From a virus, in the IMG/VR virus record IMGVR_UViG_3300032046_000183, positions 1 through 26,459 of that record: 26,459 bases of DNA; one strand, written 5' to 3'. The notes under the pieces are model-generated. The model worked only from the letters and a program-made list of their open reading frames with translations, made no database searches and was not told the DNA's origin. How positions within the stretch are numbered: position 1 is the first letter of the stretch; every line of letters starts with the position of its first letter. This document shows positions 1 through 19,030 of this stretch, in pieces. Position numbers and translations under genes: made by a program.

Positions 1-2471
1 ATTTTACCTGATGGATATCTACCAAATATAGCATTATCCATACCATATTTTGATTGTAATTGTTCAGATACACTTCTATAGTAAATATCCATTTGGTTCA
101 TTTGGTTTTGGATTACATCCCTAACTATTACATCACCAGGACCTTTTAATCTTGGATTTGTTAAATCAGTATTTGATGATGCCCCATATTCATTTGATGT
201 TCCGTATTGATATTTATTTTTAGAAAATAAATTATTTTTTTCAACCAATGGTGTTGAAAGGTCATAAGAAGCTACGCTCATGAATCCATCTATAGTATAT
301 TTAGATGGTTTATTCTTTGAAAGAAGAACTTGTCTTAATATAATACCCTGAGCAAGAACTCTTGAGAGACCTAAAAATGCAGATGTACCAATCCCTTCTA
401 CAACAATACCAAGTTGGTTTGTTGGTGGATTATGAGCAAGATTATTATCTCTAAATTTTTTTGAATATGATTCAAGGTCAGTATTAGACGGTACATTCGA
501 ACTTATTAAATTATTTCTTAGAGGAATCGAATCTGCTAATAAATTATTTCCAGTAGAAACATTGGAAGCTAAGTTGCTATTTAAATATTCTTTCGAGTCA
601 CTTAATAAGTCACTATTATCTGGAACATTAGAAGCTAAGTTGATATTTAAATATTCTTTCGAGTCACTTAATAAGTCGCTATTATCTGGAACATTGGAAG
701 CTAAGTTGCTGTTTAAATATCCTTTAGAATCTGATAACAAATCGCTAGTGTCTGGAACATTAGAAGCTAAGTTATTATTTAAATATTCTTTTGAATCTGA
801 TAATAAATCACTTGACTTTGGCGTATTTGATGCTAAATTATTTTGCAAGAAATCTTTTGAGTCAGCTTCTAAATCAGAATTGTTTGGCTTATTAGCTGAT
901 ATATTGTTTTGAAAAAATGATTTAGAATCATTTTCTAAGTCAGAATTATTTGGTTTATTCGCAGCAATATTATTTTGAAAAAATTCTGCTGAATCTACTT
1001 CTAAGTCACTTGAGTTTGGCTTGTTTGCAGAAATATTATTTTGCAAGAAATCTTTTGAGTCAGATTCTAAATCACTATTATTTTTTTTGTTGGCCGATAT
1101 ATTGTATTTTAAAAATTCTACAGAGTCATTTTCTAAATCAGAACTATTTGGTTTATTCGCAGCAATATTATTTTGTAAGAACTCCTTTGAGTCATTTTCT
1201 AAATCAGAACTCTTTGGCACATTGGTAGCAATATTATTTTGCAAAAACTCCTTTGAGTCATTCTCTAAATCAGAGCTCTTTGGTACGTTTGCGGCAATAT
1301 TATTTTGCAAGAACTCCTTTGAGTCAGTTTCAAGGTCACTTGTATTAGATACATTAGCAGAAATGTTATTTTTAAAGAACTCCTTTGAGTCATTCTCTAA
1401 ATCAGAATCCTTTGGTACGTTTGCAGCTATATTGTTTTGAAAGAACTCTTTTGAGTCACTCTCCAAATCAGAATCCTTTGGTACGTTTGCAGCTATATTG
1501 TTTTGAAAGAACTCTTTTGAGTCATTCTCTAAATCAGAACTATTTGGTTTATTTGCAGAAATATTATTTTTTAAGAATCCTTTTGAGTCAGTTTCAAGGT
1601 CGCTTGTATTAGGTACGTTTGCAGATATATTATTTTGCAAGAACTCCTTTGAATCATTCTCTAAGTCAGAATTGTTTGGTTTATTTGCAGCAATATTATT
1701 TTTAAGAAACTCTTCAGAATCTATTTGCAAATCAGACTCATTTGGCTTATTAGCAGCAATATTGTTTTTTAAAAACTCAGTTGAATCAATTTGTAAATCA
1801 GACTCATTTGGTTTGTTTGATGAGATGTTGTTTCTTAAAAATTCTTTTGAATCTTTTTCAAGGTCACTTGTATTAGATACATTAGCAGAAGTATTATTTT
1901 TTCTTATATCTTCAGAATCGCTTAATAAATCACTTCCATTAGAAACGTTTTTTGATGTATTATTAACTCTAAATTCATCAGAATTTGAATCTATGTTTTG
2001 TTTTGTACTTAAATTATCGTGATTTTTAACAATATTATTTATTCTCGCTTGGTTTGAATCTATTAAGACATCACTATTATTTGGTACATTCTTAGCTATA
2101 TTACCGACTCTGTATCTATTAGACTTTTCTAATAAATCATCTGCAGATTTAATTAAATTATTTCTGGCCAATAAAGAGTTTCTTGTATCTTCTGATAATT
2201 TTTCTAAACTTATGTTCTCAGAAACCAATTTTGCTATAAGGGCATCTCTTATTGTTTTTGAATTTTCTTCAAGATTTATTATTTTTGGAACATTCTTAGC
2301 TAATAAAGAATTTTTTGTCTGAGGATACAGAACATCATAAACATTTTGTGGAGCGATTAGATTCCTATGAAGCAATTGCCTTCTGATACTAGCGGAATAT
2401 TCCTCATAGAAATACCTTAAGTTTTCTTCACTTACACCTTCTAAATCATTATCATCCAAATATGATGCCAT
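1..2471 (-). CDS. 22-residue-repeat structural protein, 3' part beyond window edge
   Basis: The reading frame is open from ATG at 2471 to the left edge of the window, giving 823 residues with no stop, so the C-terminus is missing. The first ~120 residues are non-repetitive (begins MASYLDDNDLEGVSEENLRY). Then comes an array of about 25 copies of a 22-residue unit with consensus N-I-A-A-N-V/K-P-x-x-S-D-L-E-x-D-S-K-E-F-L-Q-N. A non-repetitive part follows, including a hydrophobic stretch GIGTSAFLGLSRVLAQGIIL and ending FGRYPSGK at the edge. I do not recognise the family. The repeat pattern (a ~16-residue helix-like segment, then an N-x-P turn) suggests a stacked helical or fibrous rod, which is inference. 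It follows the tape-measure gene, has its own promoter-like motif and lies after a terminator, so it is probably a separately transcribed virion protein, possibly a tail or baseplate fibre. No signal peptide is visible. Confidence 0.85.
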   Translation of the reverse strand, partial: MASYLDDNDLEGVSEENLRYFYEEYSASIRRQLLHRNLIAPQNVYDVLYPQTKNSLLAKNVPKIINLEENSKTIRDALIAKLVSENISLEKLSEDTRNSLLARNNLIKSADDLLEKSNRYRVGNIAKNVPNNSDVLIDSNQARINNIVKNHDNLSTKQNIDSNSDEFRVNNTSKNVSNGSDLLSDSEDIRKNNTSANVSNTSDLEKDSKEFLRNNISSNKPNESDLQIDSTEFLKNNIAANKPNESDLQIDSEEFLKNNIAANKPNNSDLENDSKEFLQNNISANVPNTSDLETDSKGFLKNNISANKPNSSDLENDSKEFFQNNIAANVPKDSDLESDSKEFFQNNIAANVPKDSDLENDSKEFFKNNISANVSNTSDLETDSKEFLQNNIAANVPKSSDLENDSKEFLQNNIATNVPKSSDLENDSKEFLQNNIAANKPNSSDLENDSVEFLKYNISANKKNNSDLESDSKDFLQNNISANKPNSSDLEVDSAEFFQNNIAANKPNNSDLENDSKSFFQNNISANKPNNSDLEADSKDFLQNNLASNTPKSSDLLSDSKEYLNNNLASNVPDTSDLLSDSKGYLNSNLASNVPDNSDLLSDSKEYLNINLASNVPDNSDLLSDSKEYLNSNLASNVSTGNNLLADSIPLRNNLISSNVPSNTDLESYSKKFRDNNLAHNPPTNQLGIVVEGIGTSAFLGLSRVLAQGIILRQVLLSKNKPSKYTIDGFMSVASYDLSTPLVEKNNLFSKNKYQYGTSNEYGASSNTDLTNPRLKGPGDVIVRDVIQNQMNQMDIYYRSVSEQLQSKYGMDNAIFGRYPSGK
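444..2102 (-). repeat. In-frame 66-bp tandem repeat array (22-aa units)
   Basis: About 25 consecutive units of 66 bp encode the 22-residue repeat; one unit near 1962-2036 is 75 bp (25 residues). From 1961 leftwards the period is exactly 66 bp. Units fall into subfamilies: NVPK/NVPN, NKPN, and a C-terminal set NLASNVPDxSDLLSDSKEYLN. Neighbouring units are often the most alike (for example those starting at 1499 and 1433, and three near 773-575), which indicates growth by local duplication. Conserved positions are N-N, N-x-P, S-D-L and D-S-K-E. Confidence 0.93.
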
Positions 2472-2554: not shown

Positions 2555-5500
2555 TTATTTAATTATAGCTGTGTCTTTAACAATTGTATGTTGTATGTCT
2601 CTACCATTCATTTTAAAGCTAATTTCTAACTTCCTCGTTTCTCCGCCTCCACCAGCACCACCAGTTGCGCTTGCAACATTTGCCATAGCAGCCATAGCAT
2701 TTCCGCCACCAGAAGCATCAGCCATTGCCTCAGAAAGTTCTTTTAGTTTTTCTAATTTTTCCAAACTTAGAGATTCTGCTGCAGCGCTTAATTTTGCCAA
2801 TCCATCTCCAGCTGAATTTAAACTATCAGCCAATAATTGAATAGCTGGCGCAATTAATGCAAGCTCAGATAATTGAGAAAACATTCCGCCTCCAAAGAAG
2901 CTCATTACTCCACCAATCATAGCAGCAGCACCAAATGCTATCATTGCAACAGATAATACTCCCAAGCCAGCAGCTAGTGCAAATAAACTACCAGCATCTA
3001 TTGTGGATAATTTTAATATAGAATCAGCTATTGTGCTAATTACCATAGAAACAGCCGTACCAACCGCAAGAACAACTGTCGCTATTCCATTAAAAACAGA
3101 TGTAATCAATGGAGCCAGTGCCCCAAGTCCTTCTGCAAATATTTTAAATGCAAATGCCAATCCTATTATAGCTACTGTTAATACAAGTATTATTGGTATA
3201 AATGGAGTTAATATTCCAAGTCCCGTAGCGGCTGCAGACGCAAAGGCAGTTATTCCTTGTCCAAGAGCACTCATTAATGATATAAATGATTTTGTTACAA
3301 TACTTACCAATTGACCAACAATTTGTTGAACTACACCTATTGCTCTAGATGCACTTTGTAAAACAGTAGTAAGTCCATCAACAATTCTTGTTGCCAAATC
3401 TAAAATCTGTTGAATTATATCTCCAACAAAAGTAAGTATTTGACCTGCTATATCTTTTATGAAATTAAAAATACCACCAATTGAATCTTTTATTCCTGTT
3501 GCTATTTTTGTAATTGAGCTTTTAATTGTCTCCCAGGTCTTAGCCATGTCCATCCCTTTTTTTGTATCAACATCTCCAGTTCCGCCTTCTCCTTCTGCCC
3601 CTCCTCCCATTCCAAGAGCTCCTGTAACTTTTGACTTTATCTTACCAAGCATGCCGCCAAGTCCACCTACACCTTTTGCAATAAAAGATTTTACACTAGC
3701 TCCAAAACTTGTTCCAAATAATATAAGAGCTGGTATTGCCCATTGTAAAATAGTACCAAGCTTACCTAATTTACCAAAAGCCTCCCAAACACCTGTAAAT
3801 ATTGTTGTAACTCCTTGTATTGCCCATGTCAATAATTCTAGTGCTGGTTGAAATATTGTAAAAATACTCATAAAAGCACTTATAAAATTAGCAAAAGATT
3901 CTTTTAAATCTTGGTTTCTTTTATTTTGTTCTTCAAGAGTTAATTCATCCGCCTTCATTTTATCTGCCAAATCCTGCCCATTTCTACTCTGTAAATCTTC
4001 CATTGATTTAATGCCCATTTTTTTAGCCATATCACTGCCTGCATAAAATTCTACCTTTCCGTCTTTACCCATTTTTAGCATGCTAGCTATTCCAGATTTA
4101 GCCAAATCTCTATCTGCTTCTTTTACGCCATCAATAGTGCCTTGAAAAGGATTTAGTTTAGCTTCATCTGTTGCATTTTGGGCAATCATTTTTTGAAATT
4201 CTTCTACAGGCACATGTGCTGCTGCAGCTGCAATTCTTAATCTATCTGCATCAATTGGGTCAAATTCATATTCTCCTTTTTCATTAAACTTGCCTATGTC
4301 TTTACCCATTCCAGTTAATATCTTCTGAAGTTCTTTTGGCCCTTTTCTTGCTGCGGCCAACAAATCCATCGGATTTATATTAGAAAAAGAGCCACCAGCC
4401 AACTGTAATTCAGAAGCCATTTCCATAGCACCCTCAATATTTCTAGCATGTTCTGCCATATTAAATATAGACTCTACACTCATATGTAATTTTTCCGCTT
4501 GAATCACCATCTTTTTTAAAGAATCTTCTCCGCCCGTAAAACCCATACTTCTCATTTTGCTCATATTCTTACTGATACCAGCAATGACCTTACTTGAACT
4601 TACTCCAAATCTTCTCGCTTCCTGGTCAGCTCCCTGCATAAAATCTTTTACTTGTTCAGAACTTTCTCCCATTCTCATTAATTCTCCCGCAAGATTTGTT
4701 ATATCGCCAGCAGCAGCACCAGTAGCACCTTCAATGGCTGCAAAATCTTTGGCCGCAGTAGATAATACAGAAAAATCTGTTGTATTTAATTCTCCAGACA
4801 TATCTGCCATTGTCTGTGCAGCCTTTTCAACTGAAACACCATATTGTGCAACATCAGTTGTTAATCTTGACATTGCCTGTTCATTATCATCCATTAAAAT
4901 ACCAGTACTTCTTTGAACTTTATGCAATTGTGTATCAAAATCAGTAAGTGCAGCTATCCAACCTGTTTTTATTTGTTTGGTTATACCATCACCAAGACCC
5001 TTCATTAAATCAAATTTCTTATTTAATTCAGAAGAGCTTTTTATTTTTTCTTCAATCAACTCGTTACCATCATTAATTATTGCATTACTCTCAAGTAACT
5101 TGTCTCTTTGGCTTGACATAATAGCCAAGACTTCTCTCTGTTTAGAGGTACCTGATTTTATTATATCATTCCAATCATTTCCTTTTGCTATTTTTTCAGT
5201 CAAACTTATTAAATCAGACTCACTAAGATTATTTAATTCTACATATTCTTTGCTTATTTGACCCATTTTTTCTAAAACCAACTTCTGCTTGACTTGATAG
5301 TCTCTAGCATAATCCATTTCTAGCTTTTTATATTCTTCTTGTTCTCTTAATTCTTTTGTTTGTTCTTGAGATAGTTGCAAATTACCATTTAATACATTTT
5401 TTAAATCTTCTTCATTTTTAATTAGATTTTTTAAAACTGGACTCATCTTTGAATTTAGAAGAGCAAAATTTGCAGCAAATGATTCTTGAGATACACTTGA

Positions 5501-5833
5501 TACATCTCTAAAGGCATCACCTAATTCTTGTTGAATCATTTCTGCCATTTCTGTTATTCGTGGAGATGAGTTTTTTACAATGTCAGCAAACTCATCTCCA
5601 AGAGTACTAACTTTATCTTTTATGTCTTTTATTTCTTCTGCTATTTTTATTAATTCAGCTGGAGTTTTTTTAACTTCTTTGAAAAAGGAAGCTCCATCAA
5701 TTTTAAATATTTCTGACGATATAGAACCCCATGACTCTTTCAAGCCATCTGTAGATTTCTTCAAAGCTTTCTGTTTTTCCAGTAAAGCATCTAAATTCTT
5801 CATTGCATCTTTATATGCGTCTTCTTTTGCCAT
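2555..5833 (-). CDS. Tail tape-measure protein
   Basis: 1092 residues. Residues 1-300 are charged and mostly helical or coiled-coil. Residues 300-500 are Ala/Met-rich helical sequence (FDTQLHKVQRSTGI..., MADMSGELN...) as in tape-measure N-terminal domains. Residues about 645-980 hold repeated hydrophobic helices separated by glycines, the strongest at 874-900, 915-937 and 948-980. A Gly-rich linker lies at 743-753 and another at ~1041-1063, before a small C-terminal end (ISFKMNGRDIQHTIVKD). Long helical protein plus membrane-like segments near the C-terminus is the usual tape-measure architecture: it sets tail length, scaffolds tube assembly and may enter the host membrane at infection. The hub-type genes upstream fit this. 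The gene is flanked by two terminators and has its own promoter-like motif, so it seems to be a single-gene transcript. The assignment rests on architecture, not on a diagnostic motif; another membrane-active virion protein is possible. Confidence 0.8.
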   Translation of the reverse strand: MAKEDAYKDAMKNLDALLEKQKALKKSTDGLKESWGSISSEIFKIDGASFFKEVKKTPAELIKIAEEIKDIKDKVSTLGDEFADIVKNSSPRITEMAEMIQQELGDAFRDVSSVSQESFAANFALLNSKMSPVLKNLIKNEEDLKNVLNGNLQLSQEQTKELREQEEYKKLEMDYARDYQVKQKLVLEKMGQISKEYVELNNLSESDLISLTEKIAKGNDWNDIIKSGTSKQREVLAIMSSQRDKLLESNAIINDGNELIEEKIKSSSELNKKFDLMKGLGDGITKQIKTGWIAALTDFDTQLHKVQRSTGILMDDNEQAMSRLTTDVAQYGVSVEKAAQTMADMSGELNTTDFSVLSTAAKDFAAIEGATGAAAGDITNLAGELMRMGESSEQVKDFMQGADQEARRFGVSSSKVIAGISKNMSKMRSMGFTGGEDSLKKMVIQAEKLHMSVESIFNMAEHARNIEGAMEMASELQLAGGSFSNINPMDLLAAARKGPKELQKILTGMGKDIGKFNEKGEYEFDPIDADRLRIAAAAAHVPVEEFQKMIAQNATDEAKLNPFQGTIDGVKEADRDLAKSGIASMLKMGKDGKVEFYAGSDMAKKMGIKSMEDLQSRNGQDLADKMKADELTLEEQNKRNQDLKESFANFISAFMSIFTIFQPALELLTWAIQGVTTIFTGVWEAFGKLGKLGTILQWAIPALILFGTSFGASVKSFIAKGVGGLGGMLGKIKSKVTGALGMGGGAEGEGGTGDVDTKKGMDMAKTWETIKSSITKIATGIKDSIGGIFNFIKDIAGQILTFVGDIIQQILDLATRIVDGLTTVLQSASRAIGVVQQIVGQLVSIVTKSFISLMSALGQGITAFASAAATGLGILTPFIPIILVLTVAIIGLAFAFKIFAEGLGALAPLITSVFNGIATVVLAVGTAVSMVISTIADSILKLSTIDAGSLFALAAGLGVLSVAMIAFGAAAMIGGVMSFFGGGMFSQLSELALIAPAIQLLADSLNSAGDGLAKLSAAAESLSLEKLEKLKELSEAMADASGGGNAMAAMANVASATGGAGGGGETRKLEISFKMNGRDIQHTIVKDTAIIK

Positions 5834-5913: not shown

Positions 5914-6465
5914 TTATTTACTCAAGTTTTTTGTCAAGTAACTAATTGCTTTATCTGGGCTCATAGTATTTAATTTAGACTCTAAATATGAAACAGCACC
6001 TCTTGTGTTAGGACCATTATAATATCCGCTTCTCAATGTGTCTAAAATTGCTGTATCTGTCATCAATTTAGAGGCCTTTTCTGGACTCATTGAAGACATT
6101 TTAGACTCTCTATAGCTCAATACAGCATCAATGTTCTTAAACTCAGAAGAGCCAATTGGTACATTAAAACTCAATTCGCTTAATGATATTTTTGAGTCAT
6201 CAAATGTCGGTATTGATTGATTAAAAGTACAAACTCTATAAGCGCCTCTCACAGCACACACCAATATCAATCCAAAAATAAAAAATTGAACAAGACCAGT
6301 TACTGCACTAGCTAAAGATTTTGGTAAAAAACCAAATAAGTCATCTCTCAAATATCTTTCTGCGTGTATTATGTCTATATTTGACACATTTGTCATAAAC
6401 AAAAAGGCTATTGTAAACATTACAGAACCCGTAACAAACTTATAAAGTGGACTAAAATTTTTCAT
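5914..6465 (-). CDS. Two-helix membrane protein with internal duplication
   Basis: 183 residues, family not recognised. Two predicted membrane segments lie at about residues 10-28 (VTGSVMFTIAFLFMTNV) and 53-73 (ASAVTGLVQFFIFGLILVCAV), followed by a soluble domain. In that domain a ~24-residue unit occurs twice: AVLSYRESKMSSMSPEKASKL (114-134) and AVSYLESKLNTMSPDKAISYL (157-177). The gene sits between the 537-aa protein and the tape measure and ends at a strong terminator. A small membrane protein beside the tape measure could be a virion protein used in DNA entry, a holin-like protein or a host-membrane effector; the sequence does not decide. Start chosen at the first Met, which directly precedes the first hydrophobic helix. 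Confidence 0.75.
   Translation of the reverse strand: MKNFSPLYKFVTGSVMFTIAFLFMTNVSNIDIIHAERYLRDDLFGFLPKSLASAVTGLVQFFIFGLILVCAVRGAYRVCTFNQSIPTFDDSKISLSELSFNVPIGSSEFKNIDAVLSYRESKMSSMSPEKASKLMTDTAILDTLRSGYYNGPNTRGAVSYLESKLNTMSPDKAISYLTKNLSK
5932..6129 (-). repeat. Duplicated ~24-residue unit inside the membrane protein
   Basis: Codons for residues 113-136 (6058-6129) and 155-178 (5932-6003) encode similar units sharing A-V-x-S-Y, E-S-K, M-S-P-E/D-K-A and L-x-T. The DNA has diverged, so this is an old duplication or a conserved helical motif. Confidence 0.7.
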
Positions 6466-6482
6466 ATTACTTGTTTTATATT

Positions 6483-6513
6483 ATTATACGCAAGTACTTA
6501 TAAAAAGTTTCAA
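6483..6513 (-). promoter_or_regulatory. Possible sigma70-like promoter before the membrane-protein gene
   Basis: On the minus strand TTGAAA (6508-6513) and TATAAT (6483-6488) are separated by 19 nt, upstream of the ATG at 6465. The spacing is longer than optimal and the -35 box overlaps the stop of the upstream gene. A degenerate TTTTTATAA lies between them. Weak evidence. Confidence 0.25.
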
Positions 6514-8123
6514 TAATTGTTATTTATTATTTTTCTAATCTCAAATCGTATAGATTCTGGCAATCCTTTACCTAAGCCTTTAGATACTATAGATTTAGTA
6601 CTAGATTTAGTACTAGATTTAGATGGAGTTGCTGATGATGAGGTAGTTACAGGATTAGTTACAGGCGCAATTGGGGCCATATTTTCAGTTCCTAAGGCCG
6701 TTTTTAACCTTGAAATGATTAAGTCCTGTACTTCCTTATTTGGACTTCCATCTGGCATATTAATATTGTCAACAAAGTATTTTATAAAATTGTTCAAATT
6801 TTGCATAGACTTGAATTCCTCTGATTTTTCTGGCTCTTGAGTTGGTTGTGCAATTGGTGTCGAAATCGCTGGCTTAGTCTTTTTTGGAAAATTAAATTTT
6901 TTAGTAGCCCTTTTAGCTTCAGCTAACCCAATAGCTTTTTGGCCAGGAATATTATTAAATATTGGGCTTAAAAATTGAAAATTTCCATATCCGTCAATTT
7001 GTCCATATTTTATTGCCCTAGCTATATTTTTTATATCCTGTTTTAAAGCGCCAGAATTTATCTGAGAAGTTACTTTATTAAATTCTCCAAACTCTTGCAT
7101 AGAATCAAAAGAAAAATTAACATCTGGCGATACTTCTCCAGTTGGGCCAGAAATAGTTTGTATATTCAAATATGGAATTTTACTTAAATTAAAAGTATAT
7201 TGTTTTCCAGGAACAAATGTAGAAGCCGCTGGTGTTGGTGTTGTTTTTTTAGTTGTAGTTGTTGAAACCGATATGAACATTTCTTTTGGATTAATAGCAT
7301 CTCCAGAAGGTATAACTATTAGCCCAGCTATATTTATTGAATTTCTGTTTATGTCAAGTATTCCCTGTCCTTTTTTGTCCCAATTTTCTAAAAAATATTG
7401 CCAATCTTTAGTTACAATTTTTGGTATATCACTTTTAAATCCATCTAATACTTCAAACTGAAATATTGAATTTGACTTATCTAATCTTTTTAAAACTTTT
7501 ATATAACTTGACTTTCCATTAACAGACTTAAACTCAAGCATATTTCCTGGAGGAATTGTTATTATATTAAATTTCTTCGTGCCTAAGCCTTTTAATGATA
7601 AAGTATTTGGTTTACCTAAAATTCCAGTATTTGTTATATCATGGAAAGAACCTGCAGCAAACGTATATGGTTCCGACCTATAATCTTCGTTTTTACCGTA
7701 AAAATGACCTTTGAAATAACTTCCCTGAAATATGCTGTTCATAAAATAATCTCCAATAAAAGGACCTGACTCCCAAATACCATTTTTAAATGCATATATT
7801 TTTTCTTTCTTTAAATCGAAACTTATACTTTCGCCCTTAAAATTAGTTTCAGGAGCAACAACAAATTTAAGCTTACTTTTTTCCCAAACATAATATTTTA
7901 AATAAGTTGCATCAGATGTTTCTTTTACGGTATTATGTCCGCCAAAAACAAAAGTACCATCTTTTTCCTGTCTGAAATTTGGATTTACTTGCGTTTGTTG
8001 TGCTTGTTGTGTGTTTCCAGTATTAGAAGCTTGTTGTGTGTTTCCAGTTTTAGAAAATAGATTTCCAAATAAACCTTCGTTTATCTCTTTTTGCTTATTA
8101 AATTGGTCGAAATAGTCTATCAT
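6510..8123 (-). CDS. 537-aa protein of unknown function, probably virion-associated
   Basis: Family not recognised. The N-terminus has a short Gln/Thr repeat (TGNTQQASNTGNTQQAQQTQ, 27-46). Residues 50-285 look beta-rich, with aromatic-Gly alternation near 115-145 (GPFIGDYF, FQGSYFKGHFYGKN). A Thr/Pro linker follows (288-300). A second domain (301-410) leads to a Lys/Pro linker, a short helical segment (435-478), a Ser/Thr/Lys-rich linker (494-511) and the C-terminal helix SIRFEIRKIINNN. Several domains joined by flexible linkers fit a phage structural or baseplate component; no catalytic motif was seen. The gene carries its own promoter-like motif and lies between the hub genes and the tape-measure region. 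Confidence 0.75.
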   Translation of the reverse strand: MIDYFDQFNKQKEINEGLFGNLFSKTGNTQQASNTGNTQQAQQTQVNPNFRQEKDGTFVFGGHNTVKETSDATYLKYYVWEKSKLKFVVAPETNFKGESISFDLKKEKIYAFKNGIWESGPFIGDYFMNSIFQGSYFKGHFYGKNEDYRSEPYTFAAGSFHDITNTGILGKPNTLSLKGLGTKKFNIITIPPGNMLEFKSVNGKSSYIKVLKRLDKSNSIFQFEVLDGFKSDIPKIVTKDWQYFLENWDKKGQGILDINRNSINIAGLIVIPSGDAINPKEMFISVSTTTTKKTTPTPAASTFVPGKQYTFNLSKIPYLNIQTISGPTGEVSPDVNFSFDSMQEFGEFNKVTSQINSGALKQDIKNIARAIKYGQIDGYGNFQFLSPIFNNIPGQKAIGLAEAKRATKKFNFPKKTKPAISTPIAQPTQEPEKSEEFKSMQNLNNFIKYFVDNINMPDGSPNKEVQDLIISRLKTALGTENMAPIAPVTNPVTTSSSATPSKSSTKSSTKSIVSKGLGKGLPESIRFEIRKIINNNY

Positions 8124-8161: not shown

Positions 8162-9178
8162 TTATCTTTTACCCTTAGATTTAGCCTTTGCAACAGCCGA
8201 TTTTTCAGCTTCATTCTTCTTTGTAATCTCTTCGCTAAGCCTATTTATGAACCAGCGCCTTTCGCCAACTGGCATTCTTTTGGCACCTTCCTCAGAAATA
8301 CCCTTACTATAATGAGCTAAAAGAAATATTTCTTCTAATACATTATTCATAAAAGAAGCAGGTAATTTTAAGAAATCAGCGCCATTACTACCAAAATTAA
8401 TATTGGAGCTTTTCTCGCAAAAAGAACATTCATATATGATATTGGTATCAATTCCTGGAAGATTATCAAATACCGTTTTTCTTATTTCTCTGGATTCTGT
8501 TATTTTTAAAATAGATAGCATTTTTACAATTCTATCTCTATCTCTCTCTCCTTCAAATTCTGCTATATAAAACCCAGTTGTTTCAACTTGTTTTCTTTTT
8601 GTTTTTTGAAAATCAATTTCTTCGAAATAACTTCTTGGTTTTATTTTTATTTTTTTATTAATTTTTTCAATTAAAATTTCTATTTCTCCATTTTCATCTG
8701 GATTCAAATTTATATCTTTTGATTTAAAATTTGAAATCATTATTGTATGCTTATCTTTTTTGCCACAATGAGGGCAGTCAATATCAACTTCAATATTATT
8801 TCCATAAGAATAAGCTCTCAAAAACATTGATATGGCTTGTACGTCACAAGAAAGAATTTCCTTAACATTAAAATCATTGTTAATTATAATTTTTTCTAAA
8901 ACTATAGGCATAGCTATGTTAGCCTCATGCATCATTTCGTTGGTTAGTATATTTTCCTCGAAATATGTAAGGTACCCAATAAGAAGAAATTCATTTTTGT
9001 CTTTATAAAAAAGGCCTTTTGAGGGTAAATTTAGCATCCCAAAAGGTCTTTCTTCATTTTTTTTACCTGCCAATCTTTGTTCAAAATCAGCATGCTCTTT
9101 AAAATTTTTTTTAAACTTTTCAAACTCTTCTCTTAACTTGGATAATTCTTCTAATATAGTAGAATCATGATTTTCCAT
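8162..9178 (-). CDS. T4 gp26/gp51-like baseplate hub protein/chaperone, paralogue A
   Basis: 338 residues. An N-terminal coiled coil (8-35) is followed by the motif LPSKGLFY (51-58), which is typical of the T4 baseplate hub family (gp26, gp51). Two CxxC pairs, CPHC (135-138) and CSFC (251-254), can form a zinc site. The C-terminal helical part (LEEIFLLAHYSKG... MPVGERRWFINRL) is also characteristic of this family, and a Lys/Ala-rich tail ends the protein. In T4 such proteins help assemble the central baseplate hub on which tube and tape measure are built. It starts 3 nt after the paralogous upstream gene (stop 9182), so the two are co-translated. T4 gp26 is shorter (about 208 aa); the extra length is the coiled coil, the zinc modules and the tail. 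Whether it stays in the virion or acts as a chaperone is unknown. Confidence 0.8.
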   Translation of the reverse strand: MENHDSTILEELSKLREEFEKFKKNFKEHADFEQRLAGKKNEERPFGMLNLPSKGLFYKDKNEFLLIGYLTYFEENILTNEMMHEANIAMPIVLEKIIINNDFNVKEILSCDVQAISMFLRAYSYGNNIEVDIDCPHCGKKDKHTIMISNFKSKDINLNPDENGEIEILIEKINKKIKIKPRSYFEEIDFQKTKRKQVETTGFYIAEFEGERDRDRIVKMLSILKITESREIRKTVFDNLPGIDTNIIYECSFCEKSSNINFGSNGADFLKLPASFMNNVLEEIFLLAHYSKGISEEGAKRMPVGERRWFINRLSEEITKKNEAEKSAVAKAKSKGKR

Positions 9179-9181
9179 TTA

Positions 9182-10021
9182 TTAGTCAACGTCTGGATAG
9201 AATAATTTAGAATTAATAGGAACATTTTTAGTTTCTGTATGATTACAATAAGGGCACTCAAATTCATAATCAAGGTCAATACCTGGTTCAATAACTCTAT
9301 TATATTCTCTAAAAAATAAAGAATCTTTTGTCGGCATTGCATTTATAAATTTAGAAATATAAGTCTTATCTTTATTTCCATTTACTTCCATAATCTGAAG
9401 CAAATATCTTTCTGTAATAAGTCTTGATACTTTCGTTCCTCCTGGTTTTTTTTGACCATTTTCAATTAATTTTGTAAGTCTTTTTTCATCAGAACCTCTT
9501 AGTAATCTGAATTTAATATTCATTTTTGTAACAGGTAACTCCAATTCATAAAGACCGTCTTCTCCTGGCATAACCTCAAGCATACGTGGCTTTAATTTAT
9601 TTAAATCAACTGTTGGGTCATAATCTTGTTTACAAGAACCACAAGATATATTTCCAGGTTTATAAAATTCTCCAAATCCAGTTTTTCTTATTTCAATAAG
9701 CAATAAATTTCTGTCTCCAGAAACCATATCTTCTGGCCTAAGGTCTTTGTCTAAGATTGCACTTTCTAATAAAACATCCAATACTTTACCGCTTCTAATA
9801 AGGTCGGTAGAAAATAAGATATTATCTTCCTCTGCAGTAAGGTATTTAATTTTTACAGTAGATTTTCCATTTGCATAAAATGCGCCACGAGAAGGAAGTT
9901 CAATCTCTTCTGTTGGTACTTTAAATTCATCATCACCCATTGGGGCTCCTGCAAATGGAGGGTTATTGTTATTGCCACCATTGTTGGCACCGCCAATACT
10001 TATTCTTTCATTATCACTCAT
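9182..10021 (-). CDS. T4 gp26/gp51-like baseplate hub protein/chaperone, paralogue B
   Basis: 279 residues. A disordered Gly/Asn-rich N-terminus (8-30) is followed by LPSRGAFY (42-49), the counterpart of LPSKGLFY in the next gene. Then come YLTAEEDNILF (60-70) and two CxxC pairs, CGSC (127-130) and CPYC (256-259). Order and spacing of these elements match the downstream gene, so the two are tandem paralogues, but this copy ends shortly after the second CxxC and lacks the C-terminal MPVGERRWF region. Likely role: baseplate hub assembly, perhaps as a hetero-oligomer with paralogue A. It is the first gene of the hub unit and has a promoter-like motif upstream. Start at 10021 is the only Met before the LPSRG motif that keeps the whole disordered tail. 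Confidence 0.8.
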   Translation of the reverse strand: MSDNERISIGGANNGGNNNNPPFAGAPMGDDEFKVPTEEIELPSRGAFYANGKSTVKIKYLTAEEDNILFSTDLIRSGKVLDVLLESAILDKDLRPEDMVSGDRNLLLIEIRKTGFGEFYKPGNISCGSCKQDYDPTVDLNKLKPRMLEVMPGEDGLYELELPVTKMNIKFRLLRGSDEKRLTKLIENGQKKPGGTKVSRLITERYLLQIMEVNGNKDKTYISKFINAMPTKDSLFFREYNRVIEPGIDLDYEFECPYCNHTETKNVPINSKLFYPDVD

Positions 10022-12534: not shown

Positions 12535-12735
12535 CTATTTAAACAATTCAACAATCTTAGTTTTTATTTCACTATAACTACATTGAATTTTTTCATTTGT
12601 GCCAACTATAAACTTCATTGACCAATCTAATCCAATTGAATTTTCGCTTGGCAAATATAATCCAATTCTTCCAACTCCATCCACATTTATCCAATTATCA
12701 TATATCCAAATATCTTTTTCTGTAACCTTTCTCAT
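12535..12735 (-). CDS. Small protein coupled to dnaE, unknown
   Basis: 66 residues, MRKVTEKDIWIYDNWINVDG then a short beta-rich segment and the C-terminal helix SEIKTKIVELFK. Its ATG overlaps the TGA stop of dnaE (ATGA), so translation is probably coupled to the polymerase. No family recognised. Partner protein of the polymerase or an unrelated filler gene are both possible. Confidence 0.6.
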   Translation of the reverse strand: MRKVTEKDIWIYDNWINVDGVGRIGLYLPSENSIGLDWSMKFIVGTNEKIQCSYSEIKTKIVELFK

Positions 12736-15700
12736 AAATCCAATTTTTTAAATTGTGCACCTCTTTTAAAATTGACGAAACCTCCTTGGTTTTTTTCAAA
12801 CCTAGATAAATATACTTTACCAACTTCAAGTTCTGGTCTTATTTTATCTGCCATAGGAGAGAAAACTCTTAAATTTGTACTGCCTATTCCGTCACCAACT
12901 TTAAGTGTCAAATATTTTGTTCCAGTCTTGGCTGTTGATTCTTTTATATCTTCTAAAATAAAGAAATACCAATCATCATCTTCAAAATTAACAATATTTT
13001 CAATAGGAGCAGTTCTCTTTGACATCTTATTAACATCAGCTCTAATACTTGACATTCTCTGTATTTTTTCAAGGTCAAAATTACAAACTTCCATGAATCC
13101 AGATTTCTTTTCTTCTAAAGATGTTTTTGGAAATTCACTTGTATCAATTTTTAAATCAAATTCTTCTCCTCCCATATCAAACATCATTATTTGATTTGGT
13201 ATCACTTTTTTCTTCTTCTTTGACTTTAAGTGATTAAGGTAAGACCTAGATTCTGACCAACTATCAAATACTCCAGCTTTGACACAAGATTCAAAAGCTG
13301 TTTTATTAAACTTAGAAAATGGTAGTTCAAAAAACTCTGCCATTGTAATTGTTTCTAAAGTTTTGCTATTTCCAGTTGAGTCTTTCTTTTTGTCAACTAA
13401 TGAAATTAATTCAGCATAAGCAATATCTCCCAATCCATTTATTCCAGAGAAACCCATTGAAATTTCTTTATCTCCAGTCATTGTCCATGCTTTACCAGAC
13501 TTAAGAGATGGCGGTAATATTTTGATGCCTCTCGACATGGCTGCAGCAATAGATGCAGCTAACCACTCTTGCACTTTTTCTTTTTTACCACTATCTTTTG
13601 GATGATTAAGAAGTGCCGTATAAAATTCAGTAGGATAATAATGTTTTAAAAATAATGTACGCATTGCTAAATAAGCATAACATACAGCATGACTTCTATT
13701 AAATGAATAACCTAAATATTTAATTACCCAATCCTTAATAACATCTACTTCATTTGCATTATAACCATTTTTTACGGCACCATCAATAAATTTGTTCCAA
13801 TATTTATCAAATTCTTTATAGTTATCATCTTCTTTTTTATTTAAAGATTCTCCCTTACCTTTTTTCATGATAGCTGAACTTGCCTTGTCCATATATCTTC
13901 TAAGCATATCCCCTTCCCCCTTGCTCATTCCGCCAATTTCGTGAGCAATAAACATTAATTGTTCCTGGAAAATTAATACTCCATTAGTTTTAGATAAAAT
14001 TGGCTTAAGAGCTGGGTGAATATATGAAATCTTATCTGCATTAAATTTATTATGTATATACTCCTCATGAGCTTTAATACCCATTGGTCCTGGTCGATAT
14101 AAAGCGTTTGCGGCAACAACTTCTTCAAAATTTTCTGTGCTCATTCCACGAATAAGCGCATTCATACCAGCACTTTCAAATTGGAATATACCATGATTCA
14201 TTCCTAATCTAAGTTCAAAATATAAATTCTTATCATTAAGGTCAACATTTTTTATTTTCTCAGAAATATCAATTCCTTTTTTTTCTTTTACAAGAGCAAT
14301 AGCATCTTTAATTACATTTAAAGTTTCAAGCTTTAATCTATCAAGTTTTAAAATTTGAAGTTCCGATAAATCTTTACCTGACTTATCAGCTTCTTGAAAT
14401 GCTGTTACAATACTTTTTTGTTTAGGAATTATATTTGTTGGCAAATATTCCCAACAAGGCCCAGGTGTAATTACTATACCAGCCGCATGCTGTCCTATAC
14501 CACGTATTTGTCCTTGAAATTTTAATGTCTCTTCAAGAATTATTTTATGTGTTGGATTTGTAAGCCAACTTCTAACTTTATCAGTACACGCTTGGTCTTT
14601 AGGCCAATTATTAAACCAATCCCTAAGAGAAAACTCAACCTTATCAAAGTTTGGCATTTCTTTAGTAACAGCATCTACATCAGAATCGAATCCAGTATAT
14701 TCTTCTCCATAGTGAGCTCTAACAACATCCTTTATAGTATTTCTCTCACTAAATGTAGAGAATGTTGATACGCTTAATACTCTTTCTTTACCATATTTCT
14801 GATGCAAGAAATCATCAGTTATATGGTCAGTGCCAGTCTCAAAATCCACGTCAATATCTGGCATTGATTTGCGTGTTGGGTTCATGAACCTCTCAAAATA
14901 AAGGTCAAATCTTATAGGGTCAATATCAGTTATTTCAAGACACCAAGATAATAAACAACCTGCAGCACTACCTCTACCAGGGCCTATCGTATGCCCTTTA
15001 CTTCTGTAGTCACGTATCAATTCCCAGTATACAAGAAAATAATCAAGAGCGTTTTTATCTTCAATTACATCTAACTCAAACTTTAATCTATCAAAATATT
15101 CCTGTTCTTTTTCAGGAGTCATTTCAACTATTTTATTTTCTTTATATTCTTTTATTTTTTGTCTTAATTTACCAATAGCAAGTTTTGTTATAATTTCTTT
15201 TGTGCTTTCTGTTTTAAAATAACTTATAACTTCTGGAGTAGCTTCATATTTTGGAAATTTTTCTGTCTTTAAATCAAAATCGAAACTACATCTCTCTACA
15301 ACTTTTAAAGTGTTTTCGAGACATTTATCAACAAACTTTTCTGGATAATTAAATCCAAAATCTTTATTAAATTTATGAAAATCATCTGCATTTGCATAGT
15401 ACAAATTTCTTGTTTCTAATTTAAATGCTTCTCCTAATTTTTTCTTTTGATTTATTGCAATTAAAGTATCTTGTAATTGTCCTTCTCCAGGAAATGCATA
15501 ATGGACATCATTAGTTAATATTGGCATCAAATTATACTTGCTGGCCATCTTTATTAACCAAGTATTGTAAATTTTTTGCCCATCAAATTCATTAAACTGC
15601 AATTCTACAGCCAAGTCCTCCCCAAACTCTTTTATGAGCATTACTAAATATTCTTCAGCTTCTGATACTTTTCCTTCACGAACAAGCTTCGACATATGAC

Positions 15701-16265
15701 TAACAGCGCAAGATGTGGTTACAAACAACCCTTCCTTATGCTCTATTAACCAATCTGTTTTAATACGACCTCTACCATAAAATCCTTCTGTATATGACTT
15801 ATATGCAAGTTTGTTTAAGTTTGTAAATCCTGTAGTATTTTTTATAAAAATAGACTGATGTGAATTGTTTCCCTCATATTTTTTTTCTTCGAATTGGCCC
15901 ATTGTGTTATTCACATAAGCCTCCATTCCGATAATAGGTTTTACACCAGCGGCTTTACATTTTTTCCAAAACTCAAAAGTACCAGACATGGTTCCATGGT
16001 CAGTAATTGCCATTGCTGGATGATTGTATTCTTTTGCTAACCTTATGTAATTATCAATACTTCCAGCGCCATCAAGAATAGAGTGAAAGGTATGAAGATG
16101 TAAGTGAGCCATAGGAGTTTTCTTCCTATCTAATATTTCAATCTCTTTTTTTAGATTATACTTCTCTTGTTCGAATTTCTCTAAATTCTCCTTAGTAGGT
16201 GAAAGATTGGGTATTGGAGTATGTGAACAACTACACTCACTGGTATGTCCGCACTGTTTTTGCAT
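12732..16265 (-). CDS. dnaE: DNA polymerase III alpha subunit (DnaE type)
   Basis: 1177 residues, the size of bacterial DnaE; it would be the replicative DNA polymerase of the phage. PHP domain (about 50-330): HLHLHT (54-59), TDHG (88-91), GMEAYV (113-118) and NDVHY (252-256), so metal ligands look largely intact. Palm: GPGRGSAAG (428-436), catalytic PDIDVDF (469-475) and third aspartate D642 in KLDRLKLETL, where the usual FLGL has drifted. Further family blocks: LYRPGPM (722-728), FQEQLMFIAHEIGGMSKGEGD (766-786) and YSFNRSHAVCYAYLAM (853-868). After the helix-hairpin region comes QIMMF (1025-1029), matching the beta-clamp-binding QxxMF, then an OB fold (about 1098-1170). The 50 residues before the PHP domain include CGHTSECSCSH (5-15), a possible metal-binding tag. 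M52 is an alternative start giving MAHLHLHT, but the upstream frame is open and I keep 16265. Confidence 0.97.
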   Translation of the reverse strand: MQKQCGHTSECSCSHTPIPNLSPTKENLEKFEQEKYNLKKEIEILDRKKTPMAHLHLHTFHSILDGAGSIDNYIRLAKEYNHPAMAITDHGTMSGTFEFWKKCKAAGVKPIIGMEAYVNNTMGQFEEKKYEGNNSHQSIFIKNTTGFTNLNKLAYKSYTEGFYGRGRIKTDWLIEHKEGLFVTTSCAVSHMSKLVREGKVSEAEEYLVMLIKEFGEDLAVELQFNEFDGQKIYNTWLIKMASKYNLMPILTNDVHYAFPGEGQLQDTLIAINQKKKLGEAFKLETRNLYYANADDFHKFNKDFGFNYPEKFVDKCLENTLKVVERCSFDFDLKTEKFPKYEATPEVISYFKTESTKEIITKLAIGKLRQKIKEYKENKIVEMTPEKEQEYFDRLKFELDVIEDKNALDYFLVYWELIRDYRSKGHTIGPGRGSAAGCLLSWCLEITDIDPIRFDLYFERFMNPTRKSMPDIDVDFETGTDHITDDFLHQKYGKERVLSVSTFSTFSERNTIKDVVRAHYGEEYTGFDSDVDAVTKEMPNFDKVEFSLRDWFNNWPKDQACTDKVRSWLTNPTHKIILEETLKFQGQIRGIGQHAAGIVITPGPCWEYLPTNIIPKQKSIVTAFQEADKSGKDLSELQILKLDRLKLETLNVIKDAIALVKEKKGIDISEKIKNVDLNDKNLYFELRLGMNHGIFQFESAGMNALIRGMSTENFEEVVAANALYRPGPMGIKAHEEYIHNKFNADKISYIHPALKPILSKTNGVLIFQEQLMFIAHEIGGMSKGEGDMLRRYMDKASSAIMKKGKGESLNKKEDDNYKEFDKYWNKFIDGAVKNGYNANEVDVIKDWVIKYLGYSFNRSHAVCYAYLAMRTLFLKHYYPTEFYTALLNHPKDSGKKEKVQEWLAASIAAAMSRGIKILPPSLKSGKAWTMTGDKEISMGFSGINGLGDIAYAELISLVDKKKDSTGNSKTLETITMAEFFELPFSKFNKTAFESCVKAGVFDSWSESRSYLNHLKSKKKKKVIPNQIMMFDMGGEEFDLKIDTSEFPKTSLEEKKSGFMEVCNFDLEKIQRMSSIRADVNKMSKRTAPIENIVNFEDDDWYFFILEDIKESTAKTGTKYLTLKVGDGIGSTNLRVFSPMADKIRPELEVGKVYLSRFEKNQGGFVNFKRGAQFKKLDL

Positions 16266-16319: not shown

Positions 16320-16562
16320 TTATGAATAATCACTACTATAATCCTGCTTGGTTTTCAGTATTTTACGGGCCATTGTGGGCAATAATTCATTTTTAAGCTT
16401 GGTTATTTTAGACCTAGCCTTTACACCCCTTGCTTTTGGTTTTTTTGGACCCAAAAACTTTGTAATATCAACCTCAATTTCAGATATTAGTTTTTTAATA
16501 TCATCCAAATCTTTTTTTATTTTATAAGTGTCATTTACATTAAAAAAATCATCAATTTTCAT
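16320..16562 (-). CDS. Small basic helical protein after the portal, unknown
   Basis: 80 residues: an acidic N-terminal helix (about 1-36), a Lys/Arg hinge GPKKPKARGVKAR and a C-terminal helix (50-75). Its ATG overlaps the portal TAA (TAATG), so it is translationally coupled to the portal. In T4 the small prohead core genes 67 and 68 follow the portal, so a scaffold role is possible by position. The sequence itself is not acidic like gp67, and I do not recognise it. Confidence 0.65.
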   Translation of the reverse strand: MKIDDFFNVNDTYKIKKDLDDIKKLISEIEVDITKFLGPKKPKARGVKARSKITKLKNELLPTMARKILKTKQDYSSDYS

Positions 16563-19030
16563 TATTCATTACTTGGGTACATAGTATTGCTTTTTTGAGC
16601 ATCATCTTGACTTGCATTCAATCCAGTTCCAGTATTTGTCTGGTCCAACATACTCGTTGCATTTGAATCGTCTTGATTAGCGCCCATCAAAGTATTACTA
16701 GAGCTAATAATATTATCTTGAGTCATTTCTCTTTGCTTGTCATCTTGATGAGCATTCATACCATTATTATCGTCTGTAGCATTTACTTGACTATGGTCTC
16801 TTTGTTGGTCATCTTGATGTGCAGTCATCCCATTATTGTCGTCTTCATAGATTATTTCATCAACTTCTTCCATATCTTCAACCTCTTCAACTTCTTCTAT
16901 TTCTTCTGAAATGATATCGTTTTGTTTATTGAACATATTTCCAAGAAAATTTAACATATCATTAGTTTCGTTAACTAATTTTTCATTTTTAGAAAACAAA
17001 GGATTTTCTTCTGTATTTTCTTTTAATAAATTTTCCTCTGGAATATTAGTTTTACTAATATCTAAATCTTGCTGAATTCTTTCAAACAACTTCTGAGTTT
17101 TATAATTTAATTTTTGATTATTTTTTAATAATGATGTTTCAGAATCTTCATTAATTTTTTCATCTTTACCCAACAAATCATCTAAATAATTATCAAATCT
17201 ATTATCTGATTCTTTAAGTGTTTTTTTAAGCATTGTATTTCTACTCTCAGCTAATGGAGGTAATTCTTCTCCACCTCCTGCTTCAGGGGTTGGTCCACCA
17301 GCACCCGCTTCAGCGCCACCACCTAATTCTCCGCCAACTTCTCCACCAGCAGCTCCAGGACCACCAGCAGCTCCAGGACCACCAGCAGCTTCTGGTCCGC
17401 CACCTAAATCAGCTCCACCACCTAAACCTCCGCCAAGAACACTTCCGCCGCCTCCGCCGCCACCCATATCTCCACCACCTTCATCACCACCCTCAATACT
17501 TGCCTGAGCAACCGCACCAGGTATTTCATATTTAGCATCAAGCTCATCAAATAAGCCAATCTTTTTATATGTATCAACGGCTGAATCAATTTCTGCAAAT
17601 ATTTTCTTCTCAACTTTCTTCTGCTTCAATATTAATTTAATATCTGCTTTAGAAAATCCAAGAATGTTTTCCATTACCCAAGTCCATGATGTGAACGAAG
17701 TAGAATCTGGTGCATAATATTCTTTGGCAACTTCTAATCTTGCCTTCATTGTCTCAAGCTTTAAAAGTTCTTGTTGAGTAGAAGGGTTTGTAAGACTTAA
17801 TGAGAAATTATCAATATCATCTTTGAATCCTGCGAAATACAAATGTATGTTTGCTATTCTTCTTAATTCCATTAAAACAATTTCTTGAATGGAATTTATT
17901 GTTCTAGAAAATCTTAAATCAGCTTGAGATAAAGTACTACCACCTGGCATACTCTCTGCATAGTTCAAATAGGTTTTAGGAACTTGCAATGAAGCAAATA
18001 GTTTGTTTTGTAAATATTCGATATCCTGAATATCTCCTAAATTAGAAGCTCCAGGTAATGTATCAATTCTTGAAGACTTATCTCCACGAATAGGGATGAA
18101 ATAATCCTCAGTAATGTTCATTGGATTATATTTCATGTTTATGTTTCCAGTTTTCTGGTCAACAATAGGCGCTTTTTTAATTTGATTTTGAATTTTTTGA
18201 ACGTATTGTTTTACATCCCCATCTTCTAAATTACCAATCTCAATATAAAATACTCTTCTTTCTGGAGCTCTTGTAATACGATATACCAACATTGAGTCTT
18301 CTGCAAGTTGTAATTGCTTCCATAATTTTCTTGCTGGGTCCAATATAGAACGACCATAAGGAAGTTTTTTTGTATCTTCAATTAATCTAAAATGTGCAAT
18401 CTGCCATTCTTCAAAATAATCATTTGTTGTTTCCCATCTAAATCTTACGGCATTTGGTTTTCCTTCATAACCTTCTTCTCTATGAAGCTCTTCAACTGGA
18501 AGTGTCATATAATCATATATACCATCACTTTTATCAATATGAAGATGTACAAAGTAATCTCCATATTTAATTAAATCTCTAATCCAAAGTTTAAGATTAA
18601 ATTCTACATTTAAACGTTTATTAAACAAATCTTTTAATACATCTTTTACTCTTGAATTTTCAGAATACACTTCAAGAATATTTCCTTTTTCATTTCTTGT
18701 CAAACATTCATCTCTAATAATATTAAGTGCTGCTGCAATTTCTGGAGACATGTCCATAGCTCTATAATCTTGATAAGCTGATATTCTATCGGTATCAAAA
18801 TATAAAGTTCTTTGATATAAATTATGTCCAATTTTATTTACTTGCCAATCTAAATATTGCTGTTGAATATCTTCAATTGCATTACTTTGATTTGAAATAA
18901 GTCCGCCACTTCCTTGGGATGAAAATTGTGCTGTATGAGGCATCTCAGGAGTTATTCTTTTACCTCCATTTATAGCGTCTAAAACACCTTGAAATATGCT
19001 ACTTTGTTGATTTTGTTGACTTTCTGCCAT
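16562..19030 (-). CDS. Portal protein, T4 gp20-like, with long C-terminal extension
   Basis: 822 residues. The core (about 55-500) is the T4-type portal: YFDTDRISAYQDYRAMD (77-93), MSPEIAAALNIIRDECL (94-110), WIRDLIKYGDYFVHLH (149-164), PYGRSILDPARKLWKQLQLAEDSMLVYRITRAPERRVFYIEIG (224-266) and LPGASNLGDIQDIEYLQNKL (325-344). It forms the dodecameric ring through which DNA enters the head. T4 gp20 is about 524 residues; here about 310 more follow: a Gly/Ala-rich stretch (513-588), helical and acidic segments (708-730) and four QDD repeats (732-810). The C-terminal side of portals points into the capsid, so the extension may act as an internal scaffold or bind a core protein; that is inference. 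It lies downstream of the terminase gene with a 54-bp gap, and no clear promoter is visible there. Confidence 0.93.
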   Translation of the reverse strand: MAESQQNQQSSIFQGVLDAINGGKRITPEMPHTAQFSSQGSGGLISNQSNAIEDIQQQYLDWQVNKIGHNLYQRTLYFDTDRISAYQDYRAMDMSPEIAAALNIIRDECLTRNEKGNILEVYSENSRVKDVLKDLFNKRLNVEFNLKLWIRDLIKYGDYFVHLHIDKSDGIYDYMTLPVEELHREEGYEGKPNAVRFRWETTNDYFEEWQIAHFRLIEDTKKLPYGRSILDPARKLWKQLQLAEDSMLVYRITRAPERRVFYIEIGNLEDGDVKQYVQKIQNQIKKAPIVDQKTGNINMKYNPMNITEDYFIPIRGDKSSRIDTLPGASNLGDIQDIEYLQNKLFASLQVPKTYLNYAESMPGGSTLSQADLRFSRTINSIQEIVLMELRRIANIHLYFAGFKDDIDNFSLSLTNPSTQQELLKLETMKARLEVAKEYYAPDSTSFTSWTWVMENILGFSKADIKLILKQKKVEKKIFAEIDSAVDTYKKIGLFDELDAKYEIPGAVAQASIEGGDEGGGDMGGGGGGGSVLGGGLGGGADLGGGPEAAGGPGAAGGPGAAGGEVGGELGGGAEAGAGGPTPEAGGGEELPPLAESRNTMLKKTLKESDNRFDNYLDDLLGKDEKINEDSETSLLKNNQKLNYKTQKLFERIQQDLDISKTNIPEENLLKENTEENPLFSKNEKLVNETNDMLNFLGNMFNKQNDIISEEIEEVEEVEDMEEVDEIIYEDDNNGMTAHQDDQQRDHSQVNATDDNNGMNAHQDDKQREMTQDNIISSSNTLMGANQDDSNATSMLDQTNTGTGLNASQDDAQKSNTMYPSNE
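16601..16837 (-). repeat. Four NxMxAxQDD repeats at the portal C-terminus
   Basis: Units NNGMTAHQDD (732-741), NNGMNAHQDD (755-764), NTLMGANQDD (779-788) and GTGLNASQDD (801-810) are spaced by 22-24 residues. The first two are nearly identical also in DNA (around 16770 and 16830). Confidence 0.8.
17267..17494 (-). repeat. Gly/Ala/Pro-rich low-complexity tract in the portal gene
   Basis: Residues 513-588 are almost only Gly, Ala, Pro, Glu and Leu. An 18-bp unit coding GGPGAA is tandemly repeated near 17345-17390. The stretch is visibly richer in G+C than its surroundings, which follows from glycine codons and need not mean foreign origin. Confidence 0.85.

What the first reader, a model, noticed from the sequence alone, without database searches (positions are those of the whole stretch)
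1..2471. Unrecognised virion-type gene built from ~25 copies of a 22-residue repeat
The consensus NIAANVPxSSDLExDSKEFLQN repeats with an exact 66-bp period for over 1.4 kb, with subfamilies that indicate recent local duplication. I know no named phage repeat with this signature. Two turns of an 11-residue helical period, or one helix plus an N-x-P turn per unit, could give a rod. Copy number variation would change rod length, a ruler-like or phase-variable trait.
Basis: partly seen in the sequence, partly recalled or inferred. Interest (0 to 1): 0.72.

Follow-up and report, generated by a model that had tools for sequence, protein, structure and literature searches.

The report
Tail-tube initiator with tail-length repeat array
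The repeated gene makes what is most likely the tail-tube starter protein of a contractile-tailed phage, carrying about 30 copies of a 22-residue unit; across twelve related phages the number of copies tracks the length of the neighbouring tape-measure protein, which suggests a second, modular ruler (or sleeve) that helps match the parts of the tail to its length.

Summary
The repeat is real: 24 consecutive 66-bp/22-aa units in exact register (window 402-1985, - strand), preceded by six degenerate units. The contig cuts off the C-terminus. The gene directly follows the tape-measure protein (TMP). One 154-kb relative (L247) and ten further IMG/VR phages carry the same array, in the same gene position, and show the missing part. 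It holds a conserved domain shared with hundreds of post-TMP proteins that have no Pfam or PHROG entry. A predicted model of that domain matches tube initiators (Afp7/Pvc7, T4 baseplate-tube complex, Mu), Z 9-12.

Copy number is not free: 27-31 units, rising with TMP length 1013-1148 aa (n=12, r=0.96; phylogenetic contrasts r=0.96, p=6e-7). TMP per unit is 36.3-38.0 aa throughout. Seven phages with TMP cores mostly about 40% identical all have 31. Neighbouring gene lengths do not follow; the rest of the same protein follows more weakly (r=0.73). A separate clade with 44-aa units shows a similar, weaker relation.

Best reading: a tube initiator whose array lies along the TMP/tail as a modular sleeve or second ruler. 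That location is inferred, and one unit per tail ring is possible but not shown. Phase variation is not supported.

The parts
3..2471 (-). Repeat gene: post-tape-measure tail-tube-initiator-type protein; C-terminus cut off by the contig end (orthologues are 1196-1526 aa)
1986..2396 (-). Six degenerate N-terminal units (aa 26-162); the first, YSASIRRQLLHRNLIAP, matches the N-terminal motif of array-less relatives
402..1985 (-). Regular array: 24 units of 22 aa (66 bp) in exact register, consensus in the window DSKEFLQNNIAANVPxSSDLEN
3..413 (-). Post-array region (aa 687-823, LGIVVEGIGTSAFLG...), conserved across the 22-aa clade
2555..5833 (-). Tape-measure protein (1092 aa), directly upstream in the transcript
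   Evidence: (PHROG tail length tape measure, E 4e-7)
5914..6465 (-). 183-aa protein with apparent membrane segments (by eye), conserved position in the clade; its length does not track the TMP
6510..8123 (-). 537-aa protein, conserved position in the clade; its length does not track the TMP
8162..9178 (-). T4_baseplate-family protein, copy 2
9182..10021 (-). T4_baseplate-family protein, copy 1; marker used to find relatives

Best explanation
The gene encodes the tail-tube initiator of a T4-related contractile tail (the part that T4 gp48/gp54, Mu gp43 and Afp7 play: a ring on the baseplate hub on which the tube polymerises), extended at its N-terminus by a tandem array of about 30 helix-plus-linker units of 22 residues. 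The array lies along the tape measure, most likely inside the tube lumen, with each unit engaging a fixed length of TMP or tube. The initiator ring thus carries arms that sleeve the TMP and help set, or check, tail length together with it. Shown: the array; its position after the TMP; orthology; the conserved C-terminal domain in orthologues; the fold match of a predicted model; and the tight, phylogenetically robust correlation of unit number with TMP length. Inferred: that the arrays lie along the tail, that they are in the lumen, and that they act in measuring or sleeving.
For: (1) Synteny: the gene directly follows the TMP in the window and in all 11 orthologues; in L247 it precedes a baseplate wedge gene (PHROG 7145). 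T4 and Mu tube-initiator genes occupy the same slot (gene order from own knowledge; proteins from PMC3004832, PMC11915804). (2) L247's complete protein aligns with the window at 48% identity, and its C-terminus matches the post-TMP family profile at E 6e-25. (3) The predicted post-array model of L247 matches Pvc7/Afp7, phage P1, phiCD508, T4 baseplate-tube complex (5iv5), Anabaena CIS, cyanophage A-1(L) 'baseplate-initiators', Mu and pyocin R2 at Z 9-12.4; Foldseek's best hit is a CIS baseplate protein, E 5e-4. (4) Unit number against TMP length, 12 phages: r=0.96; independent contrasts r=0.96, p=6e-7; automatic slot counting agrees for 11 of 12. A line fitted on six phages predicted the array length of five of six new ones within 26 aa. 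(5) Specificity: lengths of the 537-aa-type gene, the membrane gene and the hub gene do not track TMP or unit number. (6) Unit number rather than array length looks conserved: L260 has units of 34-46 aa at its end, an array 62 aa too long, but 31 units. (7) An unrelated 44-aa array in the Microcystis-phage clade also tracks TMP (contrasts r=0.88 without one outlier, 0.73 with it): one unit per 25.6 TMP residues.
Against: The window itself lacks the C-terminal domain. The initiator assignment rests on a low-confidence model (pLDDT 49 overall, 70-80 in the best beta-strand blocks) and found no sequence match to PDB initiators. The rest of the same protein also correlates with TMP length (contrasts r=0.73, p=0.01). 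Absolute numbers do not give one unit per ring: 1136 aa of TMP at the 26-29 aa per ring of T4 and A-1(L) predicts about 40-44 rings against 31 units. Most relatives have no array, so it is dispensable in general. In another amplified lineage (L208/L209) the slope is quite different (7.4 aa per TMP residue). The repeat model is low-confidence. L260's count was made by eye.
Confidence: 0.5

Rival explanations
1. Built-in tape-measure chaperone: the array binds TMP segments one by one and keeps the long, partly hydrophobic TMP soluble until tube growth displaces it. Unit number scales with TMP length because there is more TMP to cover, but the array does not measure anything and need not remain in the tail.
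For: Same correlation; acidic, polar, low-complexity units; the TMPs carry long hydrophobic stretches; TMP chaperones are known elsewhere (lambda gpG/GT, phage p2 ORF12: own knowledge and a reference in PMC5099701).
Against: The array is fused to what looks like a permanent baseplate ring protein, and many relatives with TMPs of about 1000 aa lack any array (immuto, L079).
Confidence: 0.25
2. External structure: the array is a flexible arm or whisker on the baseplate or along the sheath, for example for host contact; its length follows the tail because it is laid along the outside.
For: Repeated polar units with flexible linkers resemble extended surface structures; some relatives carry an OmpA (peptidoglycan-binding) insert in the same protein family.
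Against: No receptor-binding or fibre domain found; copy number is strikingly constant among divergent phages, unlike typical host-range regions; the N-terminal motif in array-less relatives is strongly conserved.
Confidence: 0.13
3. No functional link: the array expands by slippage and unequal exchange, and the correlation with TMP length reflects shared ancestry of large versus small variants.
For: Units are homogenised locally (97% identical neighbours in the window; runs of identical units in L247 and L264); the C-terminal part also correlates with TMP.
Against: Contrasts on a TMP tree leave r=0.96; excluding the four shortest-TMP phages still gives contrasts r=0.90; neighbouring genes show nothing; seven phages whose TMP cores have a median identity of 42% have exactly 31 units.
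Confidence: 0.12

Closest known systems
Tail-tube initiators: T4 gp48/gp54, Mu gp43, A-1(L) gp18, Afp7/Pvc7
   Same: Position after the TMP gene; predicted fold of the C-terminal domain; expected role as platform for tube polymerisation (PMC3004832, PMC11915804, PMC10966104)
   Different: No long N-terminal repeat array is described for these in the passages read; no detectable sequence similarity to the solved ones; here the beta domain is split by a predicted helical insert
Post-TMP proteins of Microcystis phage Mel-JY01 (WWT39329) and the uncultured 484-kb phage LR756508
   Same: Same gene slot and conserved C-terminal domain; also N-terminal arrays
   Different: Different units: 44 aa in the Microcystis-phage clade and about 17 aa in LR756508, with no recognisable similarity to the 22-aa unit
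Flavobacterium phage immuto_236 (QQO91915)
   Same: Same slot and C-terminal domain
   Different: No array although its TMP has 1006 aa
Tape-measure proteins with internal repeats (e.g. phage TP901-1, PMC5099701)
   Same: Length linked to tail length; repeats
   Different: There the repeats are in the TMP itself; here they are in a second protein
Tape-measure chaperones (lambda gpG/GT, phage p2 ORF12; own knowledge)
   Same: Would act along the TMP
   Different: Separate small proteins, encoded before the TMP, not fused to a baseplate ring protein

Membership tests
Tail-tube initiator (gp48/gp54/gp43/Afp7 type) | Gene directly after the TMP, within the tail cluster | tested here: met
   Window and all 11 orthologues
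Tail-tube initiator (gp48/gp54/gp43/Afp7 type) | Tube-like beta-barrel domain | tested here: inconclusive
   Met in the predicted model of orthologue L247 (Z up to 12.4), but the model has low confidence and the window lacks this part
Tail-tube initiator (gp48/gp54/gp43/Afp7 type) | Sequence similarity to a solved initiator | tested here: inconclusive
   No profile match in PDB sequences; such proteins are often too diverged
Tail-tube initiator (gp48/gp54/gp43/Afp7 type) | Hexameric ring between hub and tube in the virion | not testable with these tools
   needs cryo-EM
Post-TMP protein family of Mel-JY01/immuto/L089 | Conserved domain FPPY..(D/E)S..W....(F/Y)(I/L)GR.E..YTYN...R | tested here: met
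   L247 orthologue, profile E 6e-25; the window itself is truncated before this domain
Post-TMP protein family of Mel-JY01/immuto/L089 | N-terminal motif S..(F/V)R..LL.(K/R)NL | tested here: met
   Profile-profile comparison E 1.3e-4, probability 54%; the repeat unit itself only E 0.03
Phase-variable repeat gene | Copy number differs between close relatives | tested here: not met
   L265/L273 29/29, L250/L252 31/31, L248/L261 31/31
Known phage repeat family (Pfam, PHROGs) | Profile match of the repeat region | tested here: not met
   none (one sub-significant PHROG hit, E 0.025)

The most novel reading that the evidence does not exclude
A second, modular molecular ruler in phage tails: the tube initiator carries a digital array, one unit per tail-tube ring or per fixed step of the tape measure, so that tail length is specified twice, and at least two unrelated unit types (22 and 44 aa) have evolved for it.
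Probability: 0.3. Interest if true: 0.85.

Novelty: new variant of a known kind. Interest (0 to 1): 0.62.

Why it matters
Tail length is thought to be set by the tape measure alone. A second tail protein whose repeat number is tied to TMP length would mean that length information is shared between two proteins, in a countable form that can be edited unit by unit. The T4 review read here calls the detailed mechanism of length determination unknown (PMC3004832). It also gives a likely role to a widespread, unannotated phage gene family (hundreds of IMG/VR contigs).

Tried and rejected
Direct tblastn of the whole protein in phage records and a single-protein scan of IMG/VR: nothing. Profile of array-less relatives against the window's post-array and N-terminal regions: no better than shuffles, so my by-eye alignment of those regions was dropped and membership now rests on L247. 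The 22-aa profile found no unit in other clades' loci. Prophages: a genome-contig scan found none. Strict threshold counting of units gave no correlation with TMP because degenerate N-terminal units fall below the cut; counting slots in register restored it; both results are reported. Fold search with the low-confidence repeat model was not run. Literature on a second tape measure or on a tube-initiator array: none found in the open library. The phrog_2441 hit (sigma32 decoy, E 0.025) is taken as a chance match to repeats.

Full report
Observation. The gene at 3-2471 (- strand) is an uninterrupted frame that runs off the contig's first base. Within it, 24 units of 22 aa follow each other without a single insertion (aa 163-690, window 402-1985). 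DNA self-identity is 0.71 at lag 66 against about 0.30 at neighbouring lags. Six degenerate units precede them (aa 26-162), so the array holds about 30 units.

Surroundings. The window is a 26-kb fragment of a T4-related virus: T4-type portal and terminase, two adjacent T4_baseplate-family proteins, a 537-aa protein, a small protein, the tape measure (2555-5833), then the repeat gene. The nearest isolated phages by these markers are Microcystis phage Mel-JY01 and Flavobacterium phage immuto, with an uncultured 484-kb phage. In all three the gene after the tape measure shares a C-terminal domain. In Mel-JY01 it also has 44-aa repeats, in the 484-kb phage about 17-aa repeats, in immuto none.

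Finding the orthologues. A scan with the window's tape measure found one 154-kb contig (L247; 43% identity in the best segment, match spanning the whole TMP). Its next gene is the complete orthologue: 1209 aa, the same N-terminus, the same array, and the C-terminus that the window lacks. Its C-terminal part matches the post-TMP family profile at E 6e-25. Further scans gave ten more phages, so the clade has twelve members with the same gene order. No relative was found in the collection of 84,980 bacterial and archaeal genomes.

What the protein is. Neither Pfam nor PHROGs knows the family. The model of the post-array part of L247 is of low overall confidence. Its beta-rich part nevertheless matches, almost exclusively among phage and contractile-system entries, tube initiators and baseplate-tube junction proteins: Pvc7 (Z 12.4), Afp7 (12.0), phage P1 (11.6), Anabaena system (10.7), the T4 baseplate-tube complex (10.2), A-1(L) initiators (10.2), Mu (9.3), pyocin R2 (9.0). 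Matches of the helical insert to coiled coils at similar Z are not informative. With the gene position after the tape measure, this makes a tube initiator the best identification.

The repeat. Across the clade the unit is DSxxFRxxDLSxNVPxxSDLEx, with S2, R6, L10, N13, D19 and L20 among the best conserved positions. The predicted model shows one helix of about 14 residues and a linker of about 8 per unit, with no compact packing (pLDDT 57). If extended, such a unit reaches roughly 40-48 A (21 A of helix plus up to 27 A of linker; my arithmetic). The first, N-terminal unit resembles a motif (S..FR..LL.(K/R)NL) found once at the N-terminus of dozens of array-less relatives (profile comparison E 1.3e-4), so the array probably arose by amplification of that motif.

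The test of the ruler idea. Unit numbers and TMP lengths are: window 30/1092, L247 27/1013, L248 31/1133, L249 31/1124, L250 31/1146, L252 31/1148, L260 31/1138, L261 31/1126, L263 31/1142, L264 28/1064, L265 29/1058, L273 29/1054. The correlation is r=0.96 (p=7e-7); with independent contrasts on a TMP tree r=0.96 (p=6e-7). Automatic slot counting gives the same numbers except L260, where long terminal units make it 34 instead of 31; with that value r falls to 0.86 (contrasts 0.82), without L260 it is 0.96. TMP length divided by unit number is 36.3-38.0 everywhere. A line fitted on the first six members predicted array lengths of five of the six later ones within 26 aa. Excluding the four shortest-TMP phages leaves contrasts r=0.90.

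Controls. Lengths of the 537-aa-type gene, the small gene and the hub gene show no relation to TMP or unit number. The non-array part of the same protein shows a weaker one (contrasts r=0.73), so part of the signal may be a general size difference. The Microcystis-phage clade, with an unrelated 44-aa unit, shows N-terminal length tracking TMP (contrasts r=0.73 with all ten, 0.88 without L021) at 1.7 aa per TMP residue, that is one unit per 25.6 TMP residues. Its control is mixed: no relation with L021 included, r=0.77 without it. A third lineage (L208/L209 and relatives) has about 53-aa repeats that grow much faster with TMP length and does not fit one unit per ring.

Mechanism. T4 has 23 sheath rings of 40.6 A (PMC3004832) and A-1(L) 24 tube rings (PMC10966104); with a T4 TMP of 590 aa (own knowledge) and an A-1(L) TMP of at least 689 aa this gives about 26-29 TMP residues per ring. 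The slope within the 22-aa clade is one unit per 33 TMP residues (about 31 if TMP is regressed on units), near but above that range, and the absolute numbers (31 units, about 40-44 rings expected) do not match one per ring over the whole tail. The safest mechanistic statement is that the array is co-extensive with a fixed share of the tape measure. A sleeve or second ruler inside the tube is my first choice, a fused chaperone the close second.

Phase variation is rejected: close pairs have equal numbers and divergent phages converge on 31. Units do homogenise locally (97% identical neighbours in the window; runs in L247 and L264), so the constancy of number points to selection on the count.

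Limits. The C-terminal domain is inferred for the window from orthologues; the fold match rests on a low-confidence model; unit counting of degenerate N-terminal units uses their register, not their individual scores (strict scoring alone shows no correlation); twelve members is a small sample.

Noticed in passing
window 19085-22036 (-): Terminase large subunit interrupted by an apparent intein with a LAGLIDADG endonuclease domain (PF14528, E 2e-11).
   Followed up: partly
window 12732-16265 (-): A complete bacterial-type DNA polymerase III alpha subunit lies between portal and baseplate genes; the same gene lies upstream of the baseplate genes in L247.
   Followed up: partly
window 8162-10021 (-): Two adjacent, diverged T4_baseplate-family paralogues, where the relatives Mel-JY01, immuto and LR756508 contributed one each.
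   Followed up: partly
window 16562-19030 (-): The portal protein has a long extra C-terminal tail with a low-complexity glycine-rich stretch and repeats of the type NNGMNAHQDD.
   Followed up: no
L089 15694-20142, residues 835-897: An OmpA-type (peptidoglycan-binding) domain inserted into a tube-initiator-family protein (PF00691, E 1e-6).
   Followed up: no
L208, L209, L214, L180, L225: A separate array of about 53-aa units in array-poor relatives, whose length rises steeply with TMP length (r 0.99, n=5) with a slope that no ring model explains.
   Followed up: partly
L004 17765-22504 (LR756508.1): A very acidic array of about 17-aa units in the same gene slot of a 484-kb phage with a 1602-aa tape measure.
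   Followed up: no
window 23862-26458 (-): Fibre-like proteins with repeats of the type SATTLSGGT..SG.TNLY.IF at the other end of the window.
   Followed up: no
L087 (IMGVR_UViG_3300020048_000772): The closest relative found by baseplate protein (78-81% identity) ends inside the second baseplate gene, so its array is unknown.
   Followed up: yes
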